Shown: positions 6,538 to 22,462 of the stretch, one piece after another
Layout of the letters: the number at the start of each line of letters is the position of its first letter
Position numbering within the stretch: position 1 is the stretch's first letter
From: a bacterium
GTDB lineage: Bacteria; Cyanobacteriota; Sericytochromatia; S15B-MN24; VGJW01
Length of the DNA: 33,132 bases
Assembly (NCBI GenBank): GCA_021781555.1
Contig: JAJXWQ010000003.1
Span: 59,723-92,854, forward strand
Direction: 5' to 3'
Program-made: the position numbers and the translations under genes
The notes under the pieces: model-generated
What the model was told of the DNA's origin: nothing
What the model saw: only the letters and a program-made list of their open reading frames with translations
Databases searched by the model: none

Positions 6538-8339
6538 GTTCAGCCGCGCCGCTCCTGACCTGCCAGGGGATCCGCAAGAGTTTCGGTGCCAGGCCTCTGT
6601 TCAGTGGCCTGTCGTTCAGCCTGCACGAGGGCGATCGGGTCGGGGTGGTCGGCCCCAACGGCTCGGGCAAGTCCACCTTTTTGTCGATCCTGGCGGGCCG
6701 GGAGCGCCCGGATGCGGGAGAACGGGTGCTCCGCCGGCTGACCCGGCTCGGCTACGTGCCGCAGGATCCAGAGCTTGCCCCCGGAAAGACCGTACGGGAG
6801 ATCCTGCTCGAGGCCCTGGCGGATGATCCGGAGGCCGGGGAACTCGAGAAGCTCCAGCGGGTTGCCGAGGCCACGAGCCGGGGCGGCTTCGCCGAACCAG
6901 AGCAACGGGTCGAGACCCTGTCCGGGGGCTGGCGCAAGCGGTTGGCGATCGTCGCGCAATGGGTGCGGCGCCCGGACGTGCTGCTGCTGGACGAGCCCAC
7001 CAACCATCTGGATCTCGAGGCGGTGCTCTGGCTCGAGGCTCTGCTCGGAACGGCTCGCGGTGCGTTCGTGGTCGTGAGCCATGACCGCTATTTCCTCGAG
7101 CGCGTTGCCACGCGGATGGTCGAGATCAATCGCCGCTTCGACGCGGGAGTGTTCGAAGCCAGGGGACGCTACAGCGACTTCCTGATCGCACGAGAGGCCG
7201 CCCTGGCCAGCCTTGCCGCGCTGCAAGATGCCCTGGCCAACCGCGTCCGGCGCGAGATCGAGTGGCTGCGGCGCGGCCCCCAGGGCAGGCAGACCAAGCA
7301 GCAGGCCCGCATCAAGGAGGCCGGCCAGCTGATCGACCAGCTGGCCGACGCCCGGGAGCGCTCGCGCGAGCGCACGGCAGACATCCGGTTCAGCACGACG
7401 GATCGCAAGACCCGCAAGCTGCTCGAGACTCGTGGCCTGGCCAAGGGATTCGGCCCCCGGGCGATCGTCAAGGACCTCGATCTGCGCATCTCACCGGCCA
7501 CGCGCCTGGGGCTGGTCGGAGCGAATGGCACCGGCAAGACGACGCTCCTGCGGTTGCTCGAGGGCAGCCTGGCCCCCGACGCGGGGGAGATCGTGCGCGC
7601 CGACGGCCTGCGGGTCGTCCACTTCACCCAGAACCGCAGCGCCCTGGATCCGGAGCTTCCCCTGAAGAGGGCCCTGGCCGAAAACGGCGATGCCGTCGTC
7701 TACCAGGGCAGGCCGATCCACGTGGCTTCGTGGGCCAAGCGCTTCCTGTTCGCACCCGAGCAGCTCGAGTTGCCGATCGGCCGGCTCTCGGGCGGCGAGC
7801 AAGCCAGGGTCCTGATCGCCAGGCTCATGCTGCAGCCCGCCGATCTGCTGATTCTCGACGAACCGACCAACGACCTCGACATCCCGACCCTGGAGGTCCT
7901 CGAGGACACCCTGCTCGAGTTCAGCGGCGGGATGGTCCTCGTGACCCACGACCGCTACCTGCTGGATCGCGTCTCGAGCGAGCTCGTGGCACTTGATGGC
8001 ACAGGCGGGGCCGCCTTCTATGCCGACCTCGACCAGTGGCTCGCGGCGAGGACGACCCGGACGCCGGCGCCGGCTCCCGCCCGGCCGGCCATCCCCAAGA
8101 AGACTGCCGCACCCAAGCTGACCTACCGGGAGCAGCTCGAATGGGATGCGATGGAAGGCCAGATCCTGTTGGCCGAGGCAACGGTGGCCGAGTGCGAGGC
8201 AGGCATCGCGGATCCGGCGATCAGCTCGGATGCGGCCGAGCTGCAGAACCGCTGCGAGGCCCTGCACGAGGCCCAGGTGGTGGTGCAGCGGCTCTACGAC
8301 CGGTGGGCGGAGCTCGAAGCCAAGCTGGCATCGAGCTAG
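6534..8339 (+). CDS. uup: ABC-F ATPase, Uup-like
   Basis: 601 residues. Two ABC domains: Walker A GPNGSGKST with LSGGW and LLLDEPTNHLD; then GANGTGKTT, LSGGEQAR and LILDEPTNDLD. Between them lies the Uup-type linker (EIEWLRRGPQGRQTKQQARI). After a Pro/Ala-rich hinge (about 505-525) comes a C-terminal helical coiled coil (about 529-601), the hallmark of Uup, which binds branched DNA in E. coli and has been linked to ribosome function. ATG 6534 overlaps the stop of the preceding ABC-F gene by four bases, so the two ATPases are co-translated. The stop TAG (8337-8339) lies inside the left edge of a hairpin repeat. Confidence 0.9.
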   Translation: MSSAAPLLTCQGIRKSFGARPLFSGLSFSLHEGDRVGVVGPNGSGKSTFLSILAGRERPDAGERVLRRLTRLGYVPQDPELAPGKTVREILLEALADDPEAGELEKLQRVAEATSRGGFAEPEQRVETLSGGWRKRLAIVAQWVRRPDVLLLDEPTNHLDLEAVLWLEALLGTARGAFVVVSHDRYFLERVATRMVEINRRFDAGVFEARGRYSDFLIAREAALASLAALQDALANRVRREIEWLRRGPQGRQTKQQARIKEAGQLIDQLADARERSRERTADIRFSTTDRKTRKLLETRGLAKGFGPRAIVKDLDLRISPATRLGLVGANGTGKTTLLRLLEGSLAPDAGEIVRADGLRVVHFTQNRSALDPELPLKRALAENGDAVVYQGRPIHVASWAKRFLFAPEQLELPIGRLSGGEQARVLIARLMLQPADLLILDEPTNDLDIPTLEVLEDTLLEFSGGMVLVTHDRYLLDRVSSELVALDGTGGAAFYADLDQWLAARTTRTPAPAPARPAIPKKTAAPKLTYREQLEWDAMEGQILLAEATVAECEAGIADPAISSDAAELQNRCEALHEAQVVVQRLYDRWAELEAKLASS

Positions 8340-8440
8340 AGTGCTCCCGGTTTGAATGGATCGAGCCCGATGAGTCAAACGGGGCCCGGTTGCGCAGCGC
8401 AGCGACCGCGCAGAGGGACCCGGTCAACCTGAAAAAGGCC
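8336..8440 (+). repeat. Dispersed hairpin repeat, copy A (full length)
   Basis: About 105 bp, nearly identical to 19076-19180, starting CTAGAGTGCTCCCGG and ending in AAAAAGGCC. The conserved core occupies 8387-8413 on the minus-oriented side. The arms around AACGGGGCCC (8378-8387) and GGGACCCGGT (8415-8424) pair. It fills the junction between convergent genes: its left edge contains the uup stop codon and its right edge encodes the last residues of the DUF362 protein. Confidence 0.85.
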
Positions 8441-9610: not shown

Positions 9611-10162
9611 CTACTCCGCGGTTGCGAGCTGGAGCCCGAAAGCTCCTGGATGATGGAAATCCGGCCGGGGGCCGGGATGGGAAAGGGCCCAGTAAGAGAG
9701 GCGGCCCGTGGGCTCGGCGACCACCGTGGCGATCCCGAGAAGCCAGGGATCGCCCCCCCAATCCAGGCAGGTCATGTCGATGCGAGCTGCCACGCGGCAG
9801 GATCCGGGCTGCCAAGAAACCGAGAAGGGGAGGGCAACAAAGGCCTCCTCCTCCGCCATGCCCGAACGGTAGGCGGCGAAACGAAAGACGTTCCAGTGCC
9901 CGGCCGGGGAAAGATTGAACTCACGGTAGCCGGCTCGCCCCGGAGCCGCCAGGAAAAGCTCGAAGCAGGTCTGCTCCCAGAGCTCGGTCGCTCTCTTGGG
10001 ATCCGCCGCGGCGACAGGGATCGAGAACGCGGAATCGGGCCCCTCCAGCCGCCAGGCGAGCTCGAGCGTCGCTCCGTCTCGCCGAGCCGTGCCAGATACC
10101 CGCACCGCGTCCGGTACGGGCAGCCCGGGATAGGGCTCCAGGACGAAGGCCCGATCGCTCAT
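9611..10162 (-). CDS. DOMON-like domain protein
   Basis: 183 residues. The block ELWEQTCFELFLA...YREFNLSPAGHWNVFRF is the diagnostic centre of DOMON-like proteins, a beta-sandwich related to heme- or sugar-binding DOMON domains. These stand-alone proteins are known mainly as conserved hypotheticals, frequently in cyanobacteria. No signal peptide or membrane segment, so probably cytosolic. Its ATG overlaps the kinase stop (ATGA at 10159-10162) and its TAG stop lies 5 bases before the DUF362 start. The context suggests a ligand- or cofactor-binding partner of the kinase and iron-sulfur protein; the ligand is unknown. Confidence 0.75.
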   Translation of the reverse strand: MSDRAFVLEPYPGLPVPDAVRVSGTARRDGATLELAWRLEGPDSAFSIPVAAADPKRATELWEQTCFELFLAAPGRAGYREFNLSPAGHWNVFRFAAYRSGMAEEEAFVALPFSVSWQPGSCRVAARIDMTCLDWGGDPWLLGIATVVAEPTGRLSYWALSHPGPRPDFHHPGAFGLQLATAE

Positions 10163-11277
10163 CGCAGCTCCCGGACGAGGGCCCGCAGATCCTCGAGGCG
10201 ATCATCGATGCTCCGCGCCAGACTGAGCTGTACGAGGGCGCGGGCCAGATTCTGACCGCGCCGCGTCACCTTGAAATAGACGTCGCCTTCGAGGTGGTCG
10301 GTGAAGAACCGCAATCCCAGCTCGAAGGCGATCAAGCGGACCGATGCAGGCAGAAAGTCGAAGTCGGCAGCATCGAAGAACCCCCGCGCGACCGCCAGGT
10401 AACCCTCCAGCACGGCCCTTCCGAGCACCGGATCGAAGCGGACGTTCTGCCAGCGCTCGGTCTCTTCCCCGTCGGGATTGCACGAGGAGCGCAGGCAATC
10501 CCCGATGTCGTACTGGGCCAGTCCCGGCTTGATGGTATCGAGATCGATCATTCCGATGGCCTGTCCCGTGGTTGCATCGAACAGGATGTTGTTGACCTTG
10601 GGATCGCCGTGGATGGGCCGCAGGCGCAAGAGCCCGCGCTCGCGGGCGTCCTCGAGGACCGGCACCCAGTCCCGGTGCTGCGCGATGAACTGCGAGCACC
10701 AGGTCTCTTCGGCGGACGGCCGGGCGCTGGCGGACCGGGCGACAGCGTCGTAGCGGGCGAGGTACTCGGGGGCGATATGGAACCCCGGCAGGGTGTCCGT
10801 GAGCTCCGAGATGGGTAGGTCGCTCAGCAGCGAGTGGAAGGTCCCGAGGGCAAATCCGACCTCCCGGGCCTGGTCCGGATCTCGAACGGCATCGATCGTC
10901 TGCGATTGCCCGATGAAGCGCAGGGCACGCCAGTACGAGCCATCGCTGGCCAACCAGTGGTCGAGGCCCTCGCCGGTCAGCAGCACGTGGGGAACCTCCC
11001 AGCGGCGCCCGGCGGCGGGCGCGGGGGGCACCGACCGCTTCTCGAGGTGGCGCATGACCGACCGGATGTTCCGCATGACCCGGTCTGGTTGCTGGAACAC
11101 CCTGGTATTGAGTCGCTGCAGCAAGAAGGGCTCGCCCTGGCCGTCCGCCGGAGTCACCAGGAAGGTCTTGTTGATGTTTCCGCTGCCATACTCCTGGATA
11201 TCGGCGGGGCGAGAGGCGGCGCCAAAGCGGGCGGCAACGTCCTGCAGGTAGTCGGTTTGCTGGACCTGTACAGTCAT
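10159..11277 (-). CDS. Aminoglycoside-phosphotransferase-fold kinase, NahK-like
   Basis: 372 residues. Small-molecule kinase of the APH/choline-kinase fold: phosphate-loop-like YGSGNINKTFLV (30-41), catalytic HGDPKVNN (223-230, Asp225) and metal-binding IDLDTIKPG (244-252, Asp245). The INKTFLV, QRLN, VMRNI and IDLDT blocks resemble N-acetylhexosamine 1-kinases (NahK/LnpB) more than antibiotic kinases, so a sugar or amino-sugar substrate is the best guess; the true substrate cannot be read from sequence. ATG 11277 follows GAGAG at a suitable distance; the frame is open upstream but lacks homology. First gene of a coupled operon (kinase, DOMON, DUF362-ferredoxin). Confidence 0.8.
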   Translation of the reverse strand: MTVQVQQTDYLQDVAARFGAASRPADIQEYGSGNINKTFLVTPADGQGEPFLLQRLNTRVFQQPDRVMRNIRSVMRHLEKRSVPPAPAAGRRWEVPHVLLTGEGLDHWLASDGSYWRALRFIGQSQTIDAVRDPDQAREVGFALGTFHSLLSDLPISELTDTLPGFHIAPEYLARYDAVARSASARPSAEETWCSQFIAQHRDWVPVLEDARERGLLRLRPIHGDPKVNNILFDATTGQAIGMIDLDTIKPGLAQYDIGDCLRSSCNPDGEETERWQNVRFDPVLGRAVLEGYLAVARGFFDAADFDFLPASVRLIAFELGLRFFTDHLEGDVYFKVTRRGQNLARALVQLSLARSIDDRLEDLRALVRELR

Positions 11278-11396: not shown

Positions 11397-13379
11397 TCAG
11401 CTCGGACGCAGGTGATAGGTGGGGAAGGTCCCGTAGCCCTTGGCGAGGGGCGTCCGACCCACGTAGTCGCACCGGAAGTCCGGCGCGCGCTCGGCCGCGG
11501 CGAGCACGGCGAAGTCCTCGCTGGCGTATACCTCGCCGGCGGGGGTGATCGGCTCCATCCTGGCGGCCCGGCTGACTTGGGTTCCCGAGCAGTTGAGACG
11601 ACCGGTCACGGGATCGGTGAACATGAACGCCGGCCCCGCGTGCAGCGCGATCCGGAAACTGGTGTGCGCCGGGAGGCCGACGGCGTGCCAGTCGGATCGT
11701 CCCGCCAGACCGCGCAGGGCCAGCGCGAAGGCTCCGGCCTCGGTGGCGGTTCCGAACACCATGTAGAGGGCATCGCCCCACGTGTTGAGGAGCTCTGGCT
11801 GCACCGGTGTCGACGCGATGAGGTCGCCGACCGCACCGAGGAAATGGGTTACGAAGTGCGGGATCTGCTCCTCCTGGAGCGCGCTGTAGCCGACGGCGTC
11901 GGCAAAGAGAAAGGCCTTGAGCTCCCGCCTCAAGCCCGTCGCTGACGGCACCGGCGAGGGACCAGCAGCCGCAACTTCCAGCTCGACGAGCGGTGGACCC
12001 GAAAGCGGCGCGGCAAGGAGCAGTTCAAGCCGAGGCACGGACCCGTCGGTACCCGGCCAGGGGTCAGGGGTACCGGGGCCCAGGACGCGGGCGGTGAGCG
12101 CCGCCAGGTCGATGATCTGGGGCTGGATCTCCGGGGCCAGCCAGCAGGAAACCGGATCCACCGTGCCTTCCGGCGAGCCGTCCCGGACCGCCAGCGCCTG
12201 CCAGTCGGCCTCGAGGGCAGTCGCTCGCAAACGCGAGAGGCCGTCCAGCATCCGGTTGGCGAAGATCCGATCGACGGGGTCCGCGCCCCCCGGGGCACCG
12301 CCAGCCTGCACCACCCGGGCGGCCCGGCCCAGAACCGCTTCGAAGCGAGCGACCCAGCGCAAGTCGCCTCCGATCGCCACGGACTGGGCGACGAAGGCAT
12401 CCCTCGCACAGGGCAACACCACGTGGATCTCCCCGCCCCGATCGAGCATCGCCTCGAGGAACACCAGATCGGCCCCACCCGCGGCAGATGCGTACCCGAA
12501 GCCCGCCTTGACGCGATCCAGCCGCTCGACGATGGCCGCACGGACGGCAGGCTCGAGCTCCGGCGGGAAACCGGGCCGCTGGCGATCCGCCGTATCGACC
12601 CCGTAGCCGGTGAATGCGACCACGGCCGGAACCGCCAGGGCGTGGTCGAAGCGGTGGGAATCCTGGCCCAGGTGCCCCAGCAGGAGCCTGGCCTGGCGCC
12701 TCGTCGAGGCCACATCCGCATGGCGATCGCCAGCCAGCTCCATGGCCCCGAAGTACTCCGTCTCGGCCACCTCCCACTCTCCCAGGATCAAGGCCGCCTC
12801 ACCCAGAGCCGCCCGGGCCCGGTAGTCCTCGGATCGAAACAGGCGCCGATCGCACACGGCCCTGACCTCTGCTGCGAGGCTCCGGGCCAGCGCAGGGTCG
12901 CCAGCCAGCATCGCGGTGGCCGCCGCGTTGATGCCGGTGTCGATCGCCCCGTCGGCGTCGCGCTCGGGATCGGCCGAGCGAAAGCCCTCGAGCCACCACG
13001 CCAGAGAGGCCCGCAAGAACCGCTCCTGGCCGGACTCGAGCCAGGCTTCCCGCTCCACCTGCGCCAGCAGACCGAGGGTCTCGCCATCGCAGCAACCTTC
13101 CTCGTGAAGGCCGGCCAGGATCGTGCGGGCCCGATCCGGTACGCCGCTGCGCAAGAGCGCGAGCGCGAGCACCTGGCGCAGACGCACGTCGTGTCTCAGC
13201 GCGGCATCGGCAAAATGGTCCGCCAGGCCGGCAGCAGCGACATCCTGGGCGAACAGCGGCTCGCCCAGACGCATGAAGCCCTCGGCCAGCTCGACATAGG
13301 CCCCCCCTGGCTCGCCGCCACTGAACTTGAACCGCTCCCAGCGCGCGAGCAGTTCTGCGAAGGGCCCAGCTGCGGTCAT
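11397..13379 (-). CDS. TRAFs-binding/TPR, SLOG-like and class III nucleotide cyclase fusion
   Basis: 660 residues. Residues 25-240: helical TPR-like region with signatures of the MAP3K TRAFs-binding domain (DUF4071): ETLGLLAQVEREAWL and TGINAAATAMLAGD. Residues about 248-360: Rossmann-like segment (VVAFTGYG; SAAGGADLVFLEAMLDRGG, EIHVVLP) resembling SLOG nucleotide-binding domains. Residues 485-660: class III cyclase domain with both metal aspartates (FADAVGYS D494, WGD D536) and the transition-state arginine (AAR, R607). The adenine-selecting Lys is Asn532, the partner Asp is Asn596, and the transition-state Asn is Ser603, so base specificity or activity is probably altered. ATG 13379 has GAGGAA just upstream and a TG-G-TAGGAT extended -10 at 13414-13406. 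Cytosolic. It is divergent to a histidine kinase gene, with 150 bp between. Confidence 0.8.
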   Translation of the reverse strand: MTAAGPFAELLARWERFKFSGGEPGGAYVELAEGFMRLGEPLFAQDVAAAGLADHFADAALRHDVRLRQVLALALLRSGVPDRARTILAGLHEEGCCDGETLGLLAQVEREAWLESGQERFLRASLAWWLEGFRSADPERDADGAIDTGINAAATAMLAGDPALARSLAAEVRAVCDRRLFRSEDYRARAALGEAALILGEWEVAETEYFGAMELAGDRHADVASTRRQARLLLGHLGQDSHRFDHALAVPAVVAFTGYGVDTADRQRPGFPPELEPAVRAAIVERLDRVKAGFGYASAAGGADLVFLEAMLDRGGEIHVVLPCARDAFVAQSVAIGGDLRWVARFEAVLGRAARVVQAGGAPGGADPVDRIFANRMLDGLSRLRATALEADWQALAVRDGSPEGTVDPVSCWLAPEIQPQIIDLAALTARVLGPGTPDPWPGTDGSVPRLELLLAAPLSGPPLVELEVAAAGPSPVPSATGLRRELKAFLFADAVGYSALQEEQIPHFVTHFLGAVGDLIASTPVQPELLNTWGDALYMVFGTATEAGAFALALRGLAGRSDWHAVGLPAHTSFRIALHAGPAFMFTDPVTGRLNCSGTQVSRAARMEPITPAGEVYASEDFAVLAAAERAPDFRCDYVGRTPLAKGYGTFPTYHLRPS

Positions 13380-13510: not shown

Positions 13511-13519
13511 TGATAAGAT
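13511..13519 (+). promoter_or_regulatory. Extended -10 promoter of the phosphorelay operon
   Basis: TGA followed by TAAGAT (13514-13519), an extended -10, lies eleven bases before the ATG at 13530. Transcription would start near 13526, leaving a leader of only a few bases. A GGAG at 13520-13523 would then be outside the transcript unless another promoter is used. Confidence 0.45.
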
Positions 13520-13529
13520 GGAGCACGGG

Positions 13530-15521
13530 ATGGTAACGGGGACGGGGACAGTGGAAGGGAAAGACGGCAGCTGCGAACAGCTCCTGGCCGAGCTGGCCGA
13601 GGCGCGACGCAGGGCTCAGGAGTTCGAGCTCCTGATCAAGGGTGTGGTCGACTACGCGATCATCCGGCTGGATCTCGCCGGGAGCATCGCGAGCTGGAAC
13701 CGGGGCGCCGAGCACCTGAAGGGGTGGACTGCCGCCGAGATCGTCGGCAGCCCCTACGAGGCTTTCTTCACGCCCGAGGATGTCGCGGCGGGAAAACCGC
13801 GCAAGCTCCTCGAGATCGCCCGGACCCGCGGGCACGTCGAGGACGAAGGTTGGCGCGTGCGCAAGGATGGCTCGCGCTTCTGGGCCGACGCCGTGGTCAC
13901 GGCCCTCCGTGACGACCAGGGGGAACTCGTCGGGTACGGCAAGGTGACGCGAGACCTGACCGAGCGCCGCAAGGCCGAGGAGCTGGCCGTCGCCAACGCG
14001 CAGCTCGTGGCCTCCAGCAAGCTCAAGGACGAATTCATGGCCAACATGAGCCACGAGCTGCGCACCCCGCTGAACTCGATCATCGGGTACACGGACCTGG
14101 TCCTCACGGACGAGGAGCAGCCGCTGTCGGAGCTCAACCGGGCCAATCTCGGCACCGTGGTGAAGAACGCCCGACACCTGCTTTCGCTGATCAACGACGT
14201 GCTGGATATCGCCAAGATCGAGGCCGGGAGACTCACGCTGTTCGCCCAGCGCTTCGAGCCGGCCGAGACCGCCCGCGCCGTGGTGTCGATGCTCGAACCG
14301 CTCGCGGCGAGCAAGAATCTGCAGCTTTCGCTGGAAGCCAGCGCAGCTACGGGTTTCATCGTCAGCGACGAGACGAAGGTGCGTCAGATCCTCACCAACT
14401 TGATCTCGAACGCGATCAAGTTCACCCGGCACGGACAGATCTGGGTGCGGGTCGGACCCGAGGACGACCAGCAGTGCCGGTTCGAGGTCCAGGACACCGG
14501 AGTCGGCATCGCTCCAGAGTACCGGGAGCTGGTCTTCGAGGAGTTCCGCCAGGTCGATCCGACCTCCACGCGCGAAGCCGGCGGAACGGGGCTCGGACTG
14601 GCGATCGTCCGCAGGCTCGCGCGGTTGCTCGGGGGCAACATCACCCTCGAGAGCGAGATCGGCCAGGGGAGTACTTTCACCGTGGTGCTGCCGCGAAGAC
14701 TTCCCGAGCACCTCCAGGCGCAGCTCCCCGAGGCGCCCGCTGGCACCCTGCCGGCGCCCTTCGCTGCCGGAGCGGGCAAGGTACCGGTGCTGGCGATAGA
14801 CGACGACCCGGACGCCCTGCGCGTGCTCGCCGGCTACCTCAAGGACGGTCCCTACAAGATCGTGGCCGCCACGAGCGGGGAGTCGGGCCTGGCCCTGGCC
14901 CGAAAGCTCAAGCCCTTTGCGATCACCCTGGACATCTTGATGCCGAAGATGGATGGGTGGATGGTCTTGCACGCCCTCAAGGCCGACCCGCAAACCGCCG
15001 GAATTCCCGTGGTGCTGCTCAGCTTCCTCGAGGAGAAGGCCATCGGCTTTTCCCTGGGCGCCTCCGCCTATCTGACCAAGCCGCTCGATCGCAAGGAACT
15101 CCTGGCGGCCCTCGACACGGTCCGGACTTCCAAGAGGGCTGGCAGGGTGCTCGTCGTCGAGGACGATCCCGAGGCCCGGGCCCTGTACCGGCAGATCTTC
15201 GATCGCGAGCGGATCCCCTACCGAGAGGCCCAAAACGGCGTGGAAGCCCTGGCCGCCCTCGAGGAGGAGGTCCCGGCCGTCGTGATCCTCGACCTGATGA
15301 TGCCCAAGCTCGACGGGTTCGAGGTGCTGTCCTGGATGCGCGCAAGAGCGCAAACGCGGGAGGTGCCGGTCGTCGTGGTGACGGCCAAGGTCCTGATGCC
15401 AGAGGATCTCGAGCGGCTATCGTCCGCCCGCCAGGTGCTGATCAAGGGTGGCAATAGCCCGGATGCCCTGGCGCAGGATCTGAAAGCCCTGCTCGACTCC
15501 CTGCGCGCACCTTCCAGGTAA
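13530..15521 (+). CDS. Hybrid sensor kinase: PAS-HisKA-HATPase-REC-REC
   Basis: 663 residues, no membrane segment, so a cytosolic sensor. PAS domain (about 33-145; DYAIIRLDLAGSIASWNRGAE), HisKA with phospho-acceptor His175 ([10 protein letters not shown]), HATPase (N box NLISNAIKF, G1 DTGVGIAPE, G2 GGTGLGLAI). Then two receivers: REC1 (about 418-530; DDD, Asp468 in LDILMPKMDG, Lys517) and REC2 (about 538-655; EDD, Asp588 in LDLMMPKLDG, Lys639). ATG 13530 is preferred because GGAG lies six bases upstream; ATG 13518 is an in-frame alternative. Two more receiver/kinase genes follow at once, indicating a multistep relay. No DNA-binding output domain is encoded, so the final output is elsewhere. 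Confidence 0.92.
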   Translation: MVTGTGTVEGKDGSCEQLLAELAEARRRAQEFELLIKGVVDYAIIRLDLAGSIASWNRGAEHLKGWTAAEIVGSPYEAFFTPEDVAAGKPRKLLEIARTRGHVEDEGWRVRKDGSRFWADAVVTALRDDQGELVGYGKVTRDLTERRKAEELAVANAQLVASSKLKDEFMANMSHELRTPLNSIIGYTDLVLTDEEQPLSELNRANLGTVVKNARHLLSLINDVLDIAKIEAGRLTLFAQRFEPAETARAVVSMLEPLAASKNLQLSLEASAATGFIVSDETKVRQILTNLISNAIKFTRHGQIWVRVGPEDDQQCRFEVQDTGVGIAPEYRELVFEEFRQVDPTSTREAGGTGLGLAIVRRLARLLGGNITLESEIGQGSTFTVVLPRRLPEHLQAQLPEAPAGTLPAPFAAGAGKVPVLAIDDDPDALRVLAGYLKDGPYKIVAATSGESGLALARKLKPFAITLDILMPKMDGWMVLHALKADPQTAGIPVVLLSFLEEKAIGFSLGASAYLTKPLDRKELLAALDTVRTSKRAGRVLVVEDDPEARALYRQIFDRERIPYREAQNGVEALAALEEEVPAVVILDLMMPKLDGFEVLSWMRARAQTREVPVVVVTAKVLMPEDLERLSSARQVLIKGGNSPDALAQDLKALLDSLRAPSR

Positions 15522-19075: not shown

Positions 19076-19180
19076 CTAGAGTGCTCCCGGTTTGAATGGA
19101 TCGAGCCCGAGGAGTCAAACGGGGCCCGGTTGCGCAGCGAAGCGACCGCGCAGAGGGCCCCGTTCAAACTGCAAAAGGCC
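19076..19180 (+). repeat. Dispersed hairpin repeat, copy C (full length)
   Basis: About 105 bp with the same boundaries as copy A (CTAGAGTGCTCCCGG to GCAAAAGGCC) and only a few differences. Here the arms AACGGGGCCC and GGGCCCCGTT pair perfectly. It sits at the end of the minus-strand peroxiredoxin gene, in the convergent junction with DUF5069. Confidence 0.85.
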
Positions 19181-20740: not shown

Positions 20741-20801
20741 ACCTTTGGCAGTTTGAACGGGTCCCGCTGCGCGGTCGCTGCGCTGCGCAACCGGGACCCG
20801 T
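20741..20801 (-). repeat. Dispersed hairpin repeat, copy D1
   Basis: Opposite orientation to copies A and C. Core at 20767-20793; outer stem ACGGGTCCC / GGGACCCGT pairs perfectly. It begins right after the SEC-C stop. Confidence 0.8.
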
Positions 20802-20814
20802 ATCTTTATCGCTT

Positions 20815-20882
20815 GGAACGGGTCCCTCTGCGCGGTCGCTGCGCTGCGCAACCGGGACCCGTTTGACTCCTTCGGCCTGATT
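20815..20882 (-). repeat. Dispersed hairpin repeat, copy D2
   Basis: Second unit in the same orientation as D1, core at 20828-20854, perfect ACGGGTCCC / GGGACCCGT outer stem, followed by the TTTGACTC flank seen in other copies. Together D1 and D2 fill the convergent junction between the SEC-C and membrane-protein genes. Confidence 0.8.
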
Positions 20883-22280: not shown

Positions 22281-22360
22281 TGCAGTTTGAACGGGTCCCT
22301 CTGCGCGGTCGCTGCGCTGCGCAACCGGGCCCCGTTTGACTCCTCGGGCCCGATCCAACC
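22281..22360 (-). repeat. Dispersed hairpin repeat, copy E1
   Basis: Same orientation as D1/D2, core at 22301-22327. Left flank TGCAGTTTGAACGGG, right flank CCCCGTTTGACTCC then TCGGGCCCGATCC. The outer stem has one mismatch (T opposite C). Confidence 0.8.
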
Positions 22361-22462
22361 GGGCCCCGTTTCAATCAAGAACGGGTCCCTCTGCGCGGTC
22401 GCTGCGCTGCGCAACCGGGCCCCGTTTGACTCGTCGGGCCCCGATCCCTTCAAACCGGGAGC
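22361..22462 (-). repeat. Dispersed hairpin repeat, copy E2
   Basis: Tandem neighbour of E1, core at 22391-22417. Its far flank (CCTTCAAACCGGGAGCAGAC) is the reverse complement of the left end of copies A and C, so the element is full length on that side. It lies between the 3' end of the methyltransferase gene and the promoter of the membrane-protein gene. Confidence 0.8.

What the first reader, a model, noticed from the sequence alone, without database searches (positions are those of the whole stretch)
11397..13379. TRAFs-binding/SLOG/cyclase fusion with a changed substrate pocket
A class III cyclase domain with intact metal aspartates (D494, D536) and transition-state Arg (R607) carries Asn in place of both base-selecting residues (N532 for Lys, N596 for Asp) and Ser603 for the transition-state Asn. 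It is joined to a SLOG-like nucleotide-binding segment and a TPR/TRAFs-binding sensor region. This combination could make or sense an unusual cyclic nucleotide; a stress or defence role is possible, since SLOG domains are frequent in nucleotide-signal conflict systems. A phosphorelay is divergently transcribed next to it.
Basis: partly seen in the sequence, partly recalled or inferred. Interest (0 to 1): 0.62.

Follow-up and report, generated by a model that had tools for sequence, protein, structure and literature searches.

The report
TPR-SLOG sensor fused to unusual cyclase
This gene belongs to a widespread, largely unannotated bacterial protein family that joins a stress-sensor scaffold and a DprA-like nucleotide-binding domain to an apparently active cyclic-nucleotide-making enzyme with an altered base pocket; relatives often sit next to TIR immune genes, so it probably turns a danger signal into a second messenger, though in this host the TIR partner is missing and the sensor domain is eroding.

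Summary
Window 11397-13379, minus strand, encodes a 660-aa protein: TPR-S scaffold (PF20308, aa 54-154), a SLOG-fold domain (aa ~250-432; best PDB folds DprA/ShosA, then MCP and LOG) and a class III cyclase (aa ~487-660). The altered pocket is a family trait: among 80 aligned sequences from many phyla the metal Asp pair and the Arg are invariant, the Lys site is Asn in 75 and "NTWGD" is near-fixed; the Asp and Asn sites drift. Seven other cyclases of the same genome are canonical. All 57 full-length relatives aligned share the architecture, and 20 of 79 loci have a TIR gene within 3 kb (0.34 expected). A Priestia relative (cyclase plus TPR-S) lies in one gene run with a Pycsar effector. In this host, a non-photosynthetic Cyanobacteriota, no TIR or PycTM gene was found; the neighbouring phosphorelay is conserved only in the genus sibling, and the SLOG domain is relaxed, and partly deleted in that sibling, while the cyclase is under strong selection. 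Best reading: a sensor-gated active cyclase, product base unknown.

The parts
11397..13379 (-). CDS of the TPR-S/SLOG/class III cyclase fusion, 660 aa (P0001)
12669..13379 (-). TPR-S helical scaffold, residues 1-237 (12 helices in the model); PF20308 match at residues 54-154 (window 12918-13220)
   Evidence: PF20308 E 8.5e-10; model; family profile matches the TPR region of human ASK1/MAP3K5, 5ulm, E 2.9e-7
12084..12632 (-). SLOG-fold Rossmannoid domain, residues 250-432; no Pfam family
   Evidence: models; Foldseek: DprA/ShosA, then MCP, LOG; no Pfam
11934..12038 (-). Low-confidence linker, residues about 448-482; residues about 397-456 are missing in the genus sibling
   Evidence: (pLDDT<50)
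11400..11921 (-). Class III nucleotidyl cyclase domain, residues 487-660
11772..11786 (-). NTWGD motif, residues 532-536: Asn at the Lys/Glu base-selecting site, Trp534, second metal Asp536
   Evidence: N 75/80, W 77/80, D 80/80
11559..11594 (-). Residues 596-607: N596 at the Asp/Cys base site, G599, S603 at the transition-state Asn site, R607
   Evidence: G and R 80/80; site 596 N33/T19/S13; site 603 S48/N26/V6
13518..15521 (+). Divergent hybrid histidine kinase, PAS-HisKA-HATPase-two receiver domains; 138 bp between the start codons
15909..17096 (+). Receiver plus histidine kinase, second kinase of the divergent cluster
10159..11277 (-). Downstream gene on the same strand: APH-family phosphotransferase; not shown to be functionally linked

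Best explanation
The protein is a soluble, sensor-gated class III nucleotidyl cyclase. The TPR-S scaffold and the SLOG domain form the input side: they bind a protein partner and/or a nucleotide-derived ligand and control dimerisation of the C-terminal cyclase, whose two active sites lie between two subunits. The cyclase is catalytically competent (two metal Asp, transition-state Arg and phosphate-side Lys kept) and makes a 3',5'-cyclic mononucleotide; its base pocket (N532, W534, Y539, N596) is remodelled and its substrate base is unknown. In the family at large the input probably comes from NAD+-linked TIR signalling, since TIR genes are the recurrent neighbours, so the typical member would relay a TIR-derived danger signal into a cyclic nucleotide. 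In this host the TIR partner is absent and the SLOG domain is eroding, so input is probably through TPR-S (perhaps with the divergent phosphorelay) and the product would be read by the host's cyclic-nucleotide-binding proteins. Shown: anatomy, folds (as models), conservation, gene association, selection. Inferred: activity, gating, ligand, product, effector.
For: Conserved architecture: TPR-S in 57/57 and Guanylate_cyc in 54/57 aligned full-length proteins. Invariant D494, D536, R607; K647 in 79/80. Cyclase dN/dS 0.04-0.08 against the sibling. Confident model, pLDDT 89, pTM 0.89; cyclase fold matches class III enzymes; middle domain matches SLOG proteins first. TIR within 3 kb in 20/79 loci, 0.34 expected, spread over many branches of the tree. 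PycTM effector next to a Priestia relative. 17 cNMP-binding domains in the host. Thoeris precedent: a TIR-made cADPR variant is recognised by the SLOG domain of ThsA (PMC9503650).
Against: No biochemistry. The window protein scores just below the Guanylate_cyc cut-off. Both base-selecting residues and the transition-state Asn differ from canonical. The window SLOG deviates from the family at several conserved positions (for example Y259 for His, G260 for Met), and no ligand is known. 59 of 79 loci have no TIR within 3 kb, and the host has no TIR. No dimer was modelled.
Confidence: 0.6

Rival explanations
1. An ordinary adenylyl cyclase with a drifted pocket: it makes cAMP, and N532/N596 are a tolerated alternative pair. 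Site 596 is often Thr or Ser in relatives, as in class IIIb adenylyl cyclases, and from my own knowledge Rv0386 uses a Gln-Asn pair and still cyclises ATP.
For: Metal, Arg and phosphate-side residues are intact; the host has 17 cNMP-binding domains and seven canonical class III cyclases, so a cAMP network exists.
Against: The NTWGD motif is almost fixed over many phyla, which is not drift; W534 and Y/F539 are bulky where canonical enzymes, including those of the same genome, have Ile/Met/Thr and Met.
Confidence: 0.4
2. A pyrimidine cyclase: aromatic residues shrink the pocket so that UTP or CTP is cyclised, as in Pycsar.
For: F492, W534 and Y539 occupy the offsets of F60, K104 and F109 of AnPycC (two before metal Asp 1, two before and three after metal Asp 2), the residues shown to be needed for cUMP synthesis (PMC11224242). 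A Priestia relative with NTWGD and TPR-S lies in one gene run with a PycTM effector. PADLOC PycC models match 16 of 57 members weakly.
Against: F492 is also usual in purine cyclases. No PycC structure is among the listed best hits by profile or fold; the window protein has no PADLOC hit; no PycTM in the host; 10 adjacent TIR proteins scanned have no cyclic-nucleotide-binding domain.
Confidence: 0.2
3. A pseudo-cyclase that binds a nucleotide but does not cyclise it, serving as part of a nucleotide sensor.
For: Both base residues and the transition-state Asn are changed; inactive cyclase domains are reported in conflict systems (PMC7159879).
Against: Metal Asp pair and Arg are invariant in 80/80 and the cyclase is the most constrained part; 26/80 relatives retain the Asn.
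Confidence: 0.1

Closest known systems
TPR-S (PF20308) scaffold, related to the TPR region of animal ASK1/MAP3K5
   Same: PF20308 above cut-off; family profile matches the ASK1 structure 5ulm at E 2.9e-7. From my own knowledge, Burroughs & Aravind 2020 (J Bacteriol, not held) proposed the TPR scaffold as a sensor of NAD+-derived signals taken into the ASK signalosome.
   Different: Output here is a cyclase, not a kinase; no ligand has been shown.
SLOG superfamily (DprA, LOG, MCP, ThsA C-terminal domain)
   Same: Rossmannoid fold; best Foldseek hits are DprA and ShosA, then MCP and LOG.
   Different: No Pfam or PDB sequence match; fused between TPR-S and a cyclase; conserved signature (GHM-D, GxDxxFxE, LPF, GGT) partly lost in this protein.
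Class III adenylyl/guanylyl cyclases
   Same: Fold, two metal Asp, Arg, phosphate-side Lys.
   Different: NTWGD motif and Y/F539 in place of the canonical Lys/Glu-x-Ile-Gly-Asp..Met; tree separates the family from the canonical enzymes sampled, 100/99.
Pycsar (PycC with PycTM or PycTIR)
   Same: Cyclase with a non-purine-like pocket; one relative lies with a PycTM effector; TIR neighbours are common.
   Different: Adjacent TIR proteins lack a cyclic-nucleotide-binding domain; weak PycC match only; no effector in this host.
Thoeris (TIR ThsB plus SLOG-containing ThsA)
   Same: TIR gene beside a SLOG-containing protein in a quarter of family loci.
   Different: The SLOG protein carries a cyclase instead of a sirtuin; no TIR in this host.

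Membership tests
Class III nucleotidyl cyclase | Two metal-binding Asp | tested here: met
   D494 and D536, 80/80
Class III nucleotidyl cyclase | Transition-state Arg and Asn | tested here: inconclusive
   Arg607 80/80; the Asn site is Ser here (S48/N26/V6 in the family)
Class III nucleotidyl cyclase | Base-selecting Lys/Asp(Thr) or Glu/Cys pair | tested here: not met
   N532 and N596; a defining feature of the adenylyl or guanylyl subtypes, not of the superfamily
Class III nucleotidyl cyclase | Cyclase fold and family profile | tested here: met
   Foldseek best hits are class III cyclases; Pfam 54/57 in the family at E<=0.01, the window protein just below its cut-off
Class III nucleotidyl cyclase | Cyclase activity | not testable with these tools
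   needs an assay
SLOG superfamily | SLOG Rossmannoid fold | tested here: met
   AlphaFold2 pLDDT 89; the 13 PDB hits with E<1e-3 are all DprA/ShosA, TM about 0.4
SLOG superfamily | Conserved nucleotide-site motifs | tested here: inconclusive
   present as family consensus, partly lost in the window protein
TPR-S | PF20308 above curated cut-off | tested here: met
   39.6 bits against 27.6
Pycsar | PycC family match | tested here: not met
   no PADLOC hit for the window protein; weak in 16/57 relatives
Pycsar | Linked PycTM or CNBD-TIR effector | tested here: not met
   none in the host for PycTM or TIR; met only in the Priestia relative
Pycsar | cUMP or cCMP product | not testable with these tools
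   needs an assay
TIR-SLOG signalling (Thoeris-like) | TIR gene next to the SLOG protein | tested here: not met
   absent in window and host; present in 20/79 family loci

The most novel reading that the evidence does not exclude
The family is a signal converter: the SLOG/TPR-S module senses a TIR-made NAD+ derivative (such as a cyclic ADP-ribose variant) and switches on a cyclase that makes a non-canonical (pyrimidine) cyclic nucleotide, joining TIR/Thoeris-type and Pycsar-type signalling in one protein; the window's genus keeps the cyclase but is losing the SLOG input.
Probability: 0.13. Interest if true: 0.8.

Novelty: new variant of a known kind. Interest (0 to 1): 0.5.

Why it matters
The parts are known, but the family as a fixed three-domain unit with the NTWGD cyclase signature has no NCBIfam or PADLOC entry of its own, its SLOG domain has no Pfam family, and no held paper contains the motif. 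Its repeated placement beside TIR genes gives a testable idea of how an NAD+-linked danger signal could be turned into a cyclic nucleotide, and the Trp/aromatic pocket makes substrate choice directly testable with one purified protein. The TPR scaffold is related to that of animal ASK1, a stress kinase.

Tried and rejected
A scan of genome contigs with the full protein found nothing; the cyclase-domain alignment then gave 257 relatives, best 80 kept. Sequence searches for the SLOG domain in Pfam and PDB were negative; only the fold search showed it. A BLAST cluster of neighbours in 24 loci first looked like nSTAND1, but strict motifs confirm it in only 3 loci, and genome-wide PF20703 hits were not mapped to the cyclase loci, so I claim no general STAND link. 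The divergent phosphorelay as a conserved partner was rejected: only the genus sibling shares it at matching offsets; other loci with kinases nearby are few. 'Unique pocket mutation' was rejected: it is a family trait. Full membership of Pycsar was rejected. Held papers do not use the term TPR-S; the paper that I recall as introducing the scaffold (J Bacteriol 2020, PMC7685563) is not held, so it may already describe TPR-S/cyclase fusions. The Rv0386 precedent is from memory; the one paper found did not treat it.

Full report
Observation. The ORF at 11397-13379 on the minus strand encodes 660 aa. The start is supported by the genus sibling, whose homologue begins at the same place. Base composition by codon position (76/53/83% GC) and dN/dS of 0.12-0.20 show a real, selected gene. 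Pfam finds TPR-S (E 8.5e-10, above cut-off) and the cyclase domain at E 4.3e-4, just below its cut-off.

Folds. AlphaFold2 with 57 homologues gives pLDDT 89.3 and pTM 0.89: twelve N-terminal helices, a Rossmannoid domain at about 250-432, a disordered linker and a class III cyclase (that model's numbering is one less than the protein's). Foldseek of the whole model finds class III cyclases. The middle domain modelled alone (pLDDT 89.1) finds DprA and ShosA as all 13 PDB hits with E<1e-3, followed at weaker scores by the Moco carrier protein and LOG among other folds. TM-scores are only about 0.4, so this is superfamily-level resemblance. No Pfam family and no PDB sequence match covers the domain.

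Family. A search of one genome per species with the cyclase domain gave 257 relatives, of which the best 80 were kept. In an alignment of 80 sequences including the window protein, D494, D536, G599 and R607 are invariant, K647 is kept in 79, the Lys site is Asn in 75, position 534 is Trp in 77 and position 539 is Tyr or Phe in 72. The Asp site is N33/T19/S13 and the transition-state Asn site S48/N26/V6. So the pocket change is a family signature, and the fixed part of it is N532-W534-Y/F539. All 57 full-length proteins aligned carry TPR-S, 54 the cyclase, 49 MAP3K_TRAF_bd and 16 a RyR domain. The family profile matches the ASK1 TPR region (5ulm, E 2.9e-7). Plasmid relatives include a Priestia protein with cyclase then TPR-S, next to RyR and PycTM genes on one strand, and a Caballeronia protein with the same domain order as the window. 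Seven other class III cyclases of the host have the canonical Lys, Ile/Met before Gly-Asp, Met after it and the transition-state Asn, an internal control. A tree separates the family from the canonical enzymes sampled with 100/99 support, with a long-branch warning for several rows, Priestia and Rhizobium among them.

Base pocket. In AnPycC, a uridylate cyclase, F60, K104 and F109 set pyrimidine choice and D62/D106 bind metal (PMC11224242). By offset from the metal Asp residues these correspond to F492, W534 and Y539. Phe at the first place is common in all class III enzymes, so only W534 and Y539 are informative. This is an inference by offset, not a structural superposition, and does not settle the substrate.

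Neighbourhoods. TIR domains are the commonest Pfam class among immediate neighbours (13 of 122). With a TIR profile, 20 of 79 loci have a TIR gene within 3 kb, many within 150 bp or overlapping. The background in 38 of the same genomes is 154 listed TIR domains in about 185 Mb, which predicts 0.34. TIR-linked members lie in Acidobacteriota, Chloroflexota, Thermodesulfobacteriota, Verrucomicrobiota, Spirochaetota, Planctomycetota and Pseudomonadota branches, so the link arose or was kept repeatedly. Ten adjacent TIR proteins scanned carry TPR, Sel1 or other extensions but no cyclic-nucleotide-binding domain, so the TIR is more likely the source of a signal, or a contact partner, than a cNMP-gated effector. 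Caveats: the loci are the 80 best matches, gene calls are crude and relatives are not independent. A cyanobacterial protein (L107) has TPR-S and SLOG behind a different N-terminal domain, which I take (by eye only) to be a nucleoside-hydrolase-like domain, so the sensor pair appears to be reused.

This host. Same-phylum genomes carry photosystem II D1 genes, while own-class genomes do not: a non-photosynthetic class of Cyanobacteriota (inference: probably Sericytochromatia). The genome has one TPR-S protein, no TIR_2 match, no PycTM and 17 cNMP-binding domains. The divergent gene 138 bp away is a hybrid histidine kinase followed by a receiver gene and a receiver-kinase, syntenic in the sibling. 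dN/dS against the sibling is lowest in the cyclase (0.04-0.08), then TPR (0.14), and highest in SLOG (0.23-0.40); the sibling lacks the end of the SLOG domain, about residues 397-456, and the window protein departs from SLOG positions that are conserved in the family. The cyclase is what this lineage keeps.

Conclusion. An apparently active, sensor-gated class III cyclase of a widespread TIR-associated family. Product base, ligand and effector are open. I rate it a new variant of a known kind: known parts and a known theme of nucleotide-signal conflict systems, in a fixed, largely unannotated combination with a distinct catalytic pocket.

Noticed in passing
window 8336-8440, 19076-19180, 20752-20881, 22286-22444: A dispersed repeat with core GCGCGGTCGCTGCGCTGCGCAACCGGG occurs in both orientations between genes, sometimes in arrays of 60-104 nt spacing; the host genome (3.8 Mb) holds 343 copies with at most one mismatch, none of the reversed control. 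REP-like; no Rfam match in the window at gathering thresholds.
   Followed up: partly
L010 3118-7744 (Priestia aryabhattai plasmid NZ_CP128553.1): Five genes on one strand: PycTM effector, two unassigned proteins, NTWGD cyclase fused to TPR-S, RyR domain protein; looks like an undescribed Pycsar-type operon.
   Followed up: partly
L107 (Cyanobacteriota genome G108): TPR-S plus SLOG behind an N-terminal domain starting HAFVVMPFG, perhaps nucleoside deoxyribosyltransferase-like, with no cyclase in the frame read: the sensor pair seems reused with another enzyme.
   Followed up: no
L009 5980-7053 (Rhizobium beringeri plasmid): NTWGD-type cyclase fused to a C-terminal NUDIX domain, with a separate NUDIX gene downstream.
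   Followed up: no
L015/L003 (genus sibling): In-frame loss of about 57 residues covering the end of the SLOG domain while the flanking domains stay intact.
   Followed up: yes
16 of 57 family proteins (alignment A3): A RyR domain is fused to the TPR-S/SLOG/cyclase protein.
   Followed up: no
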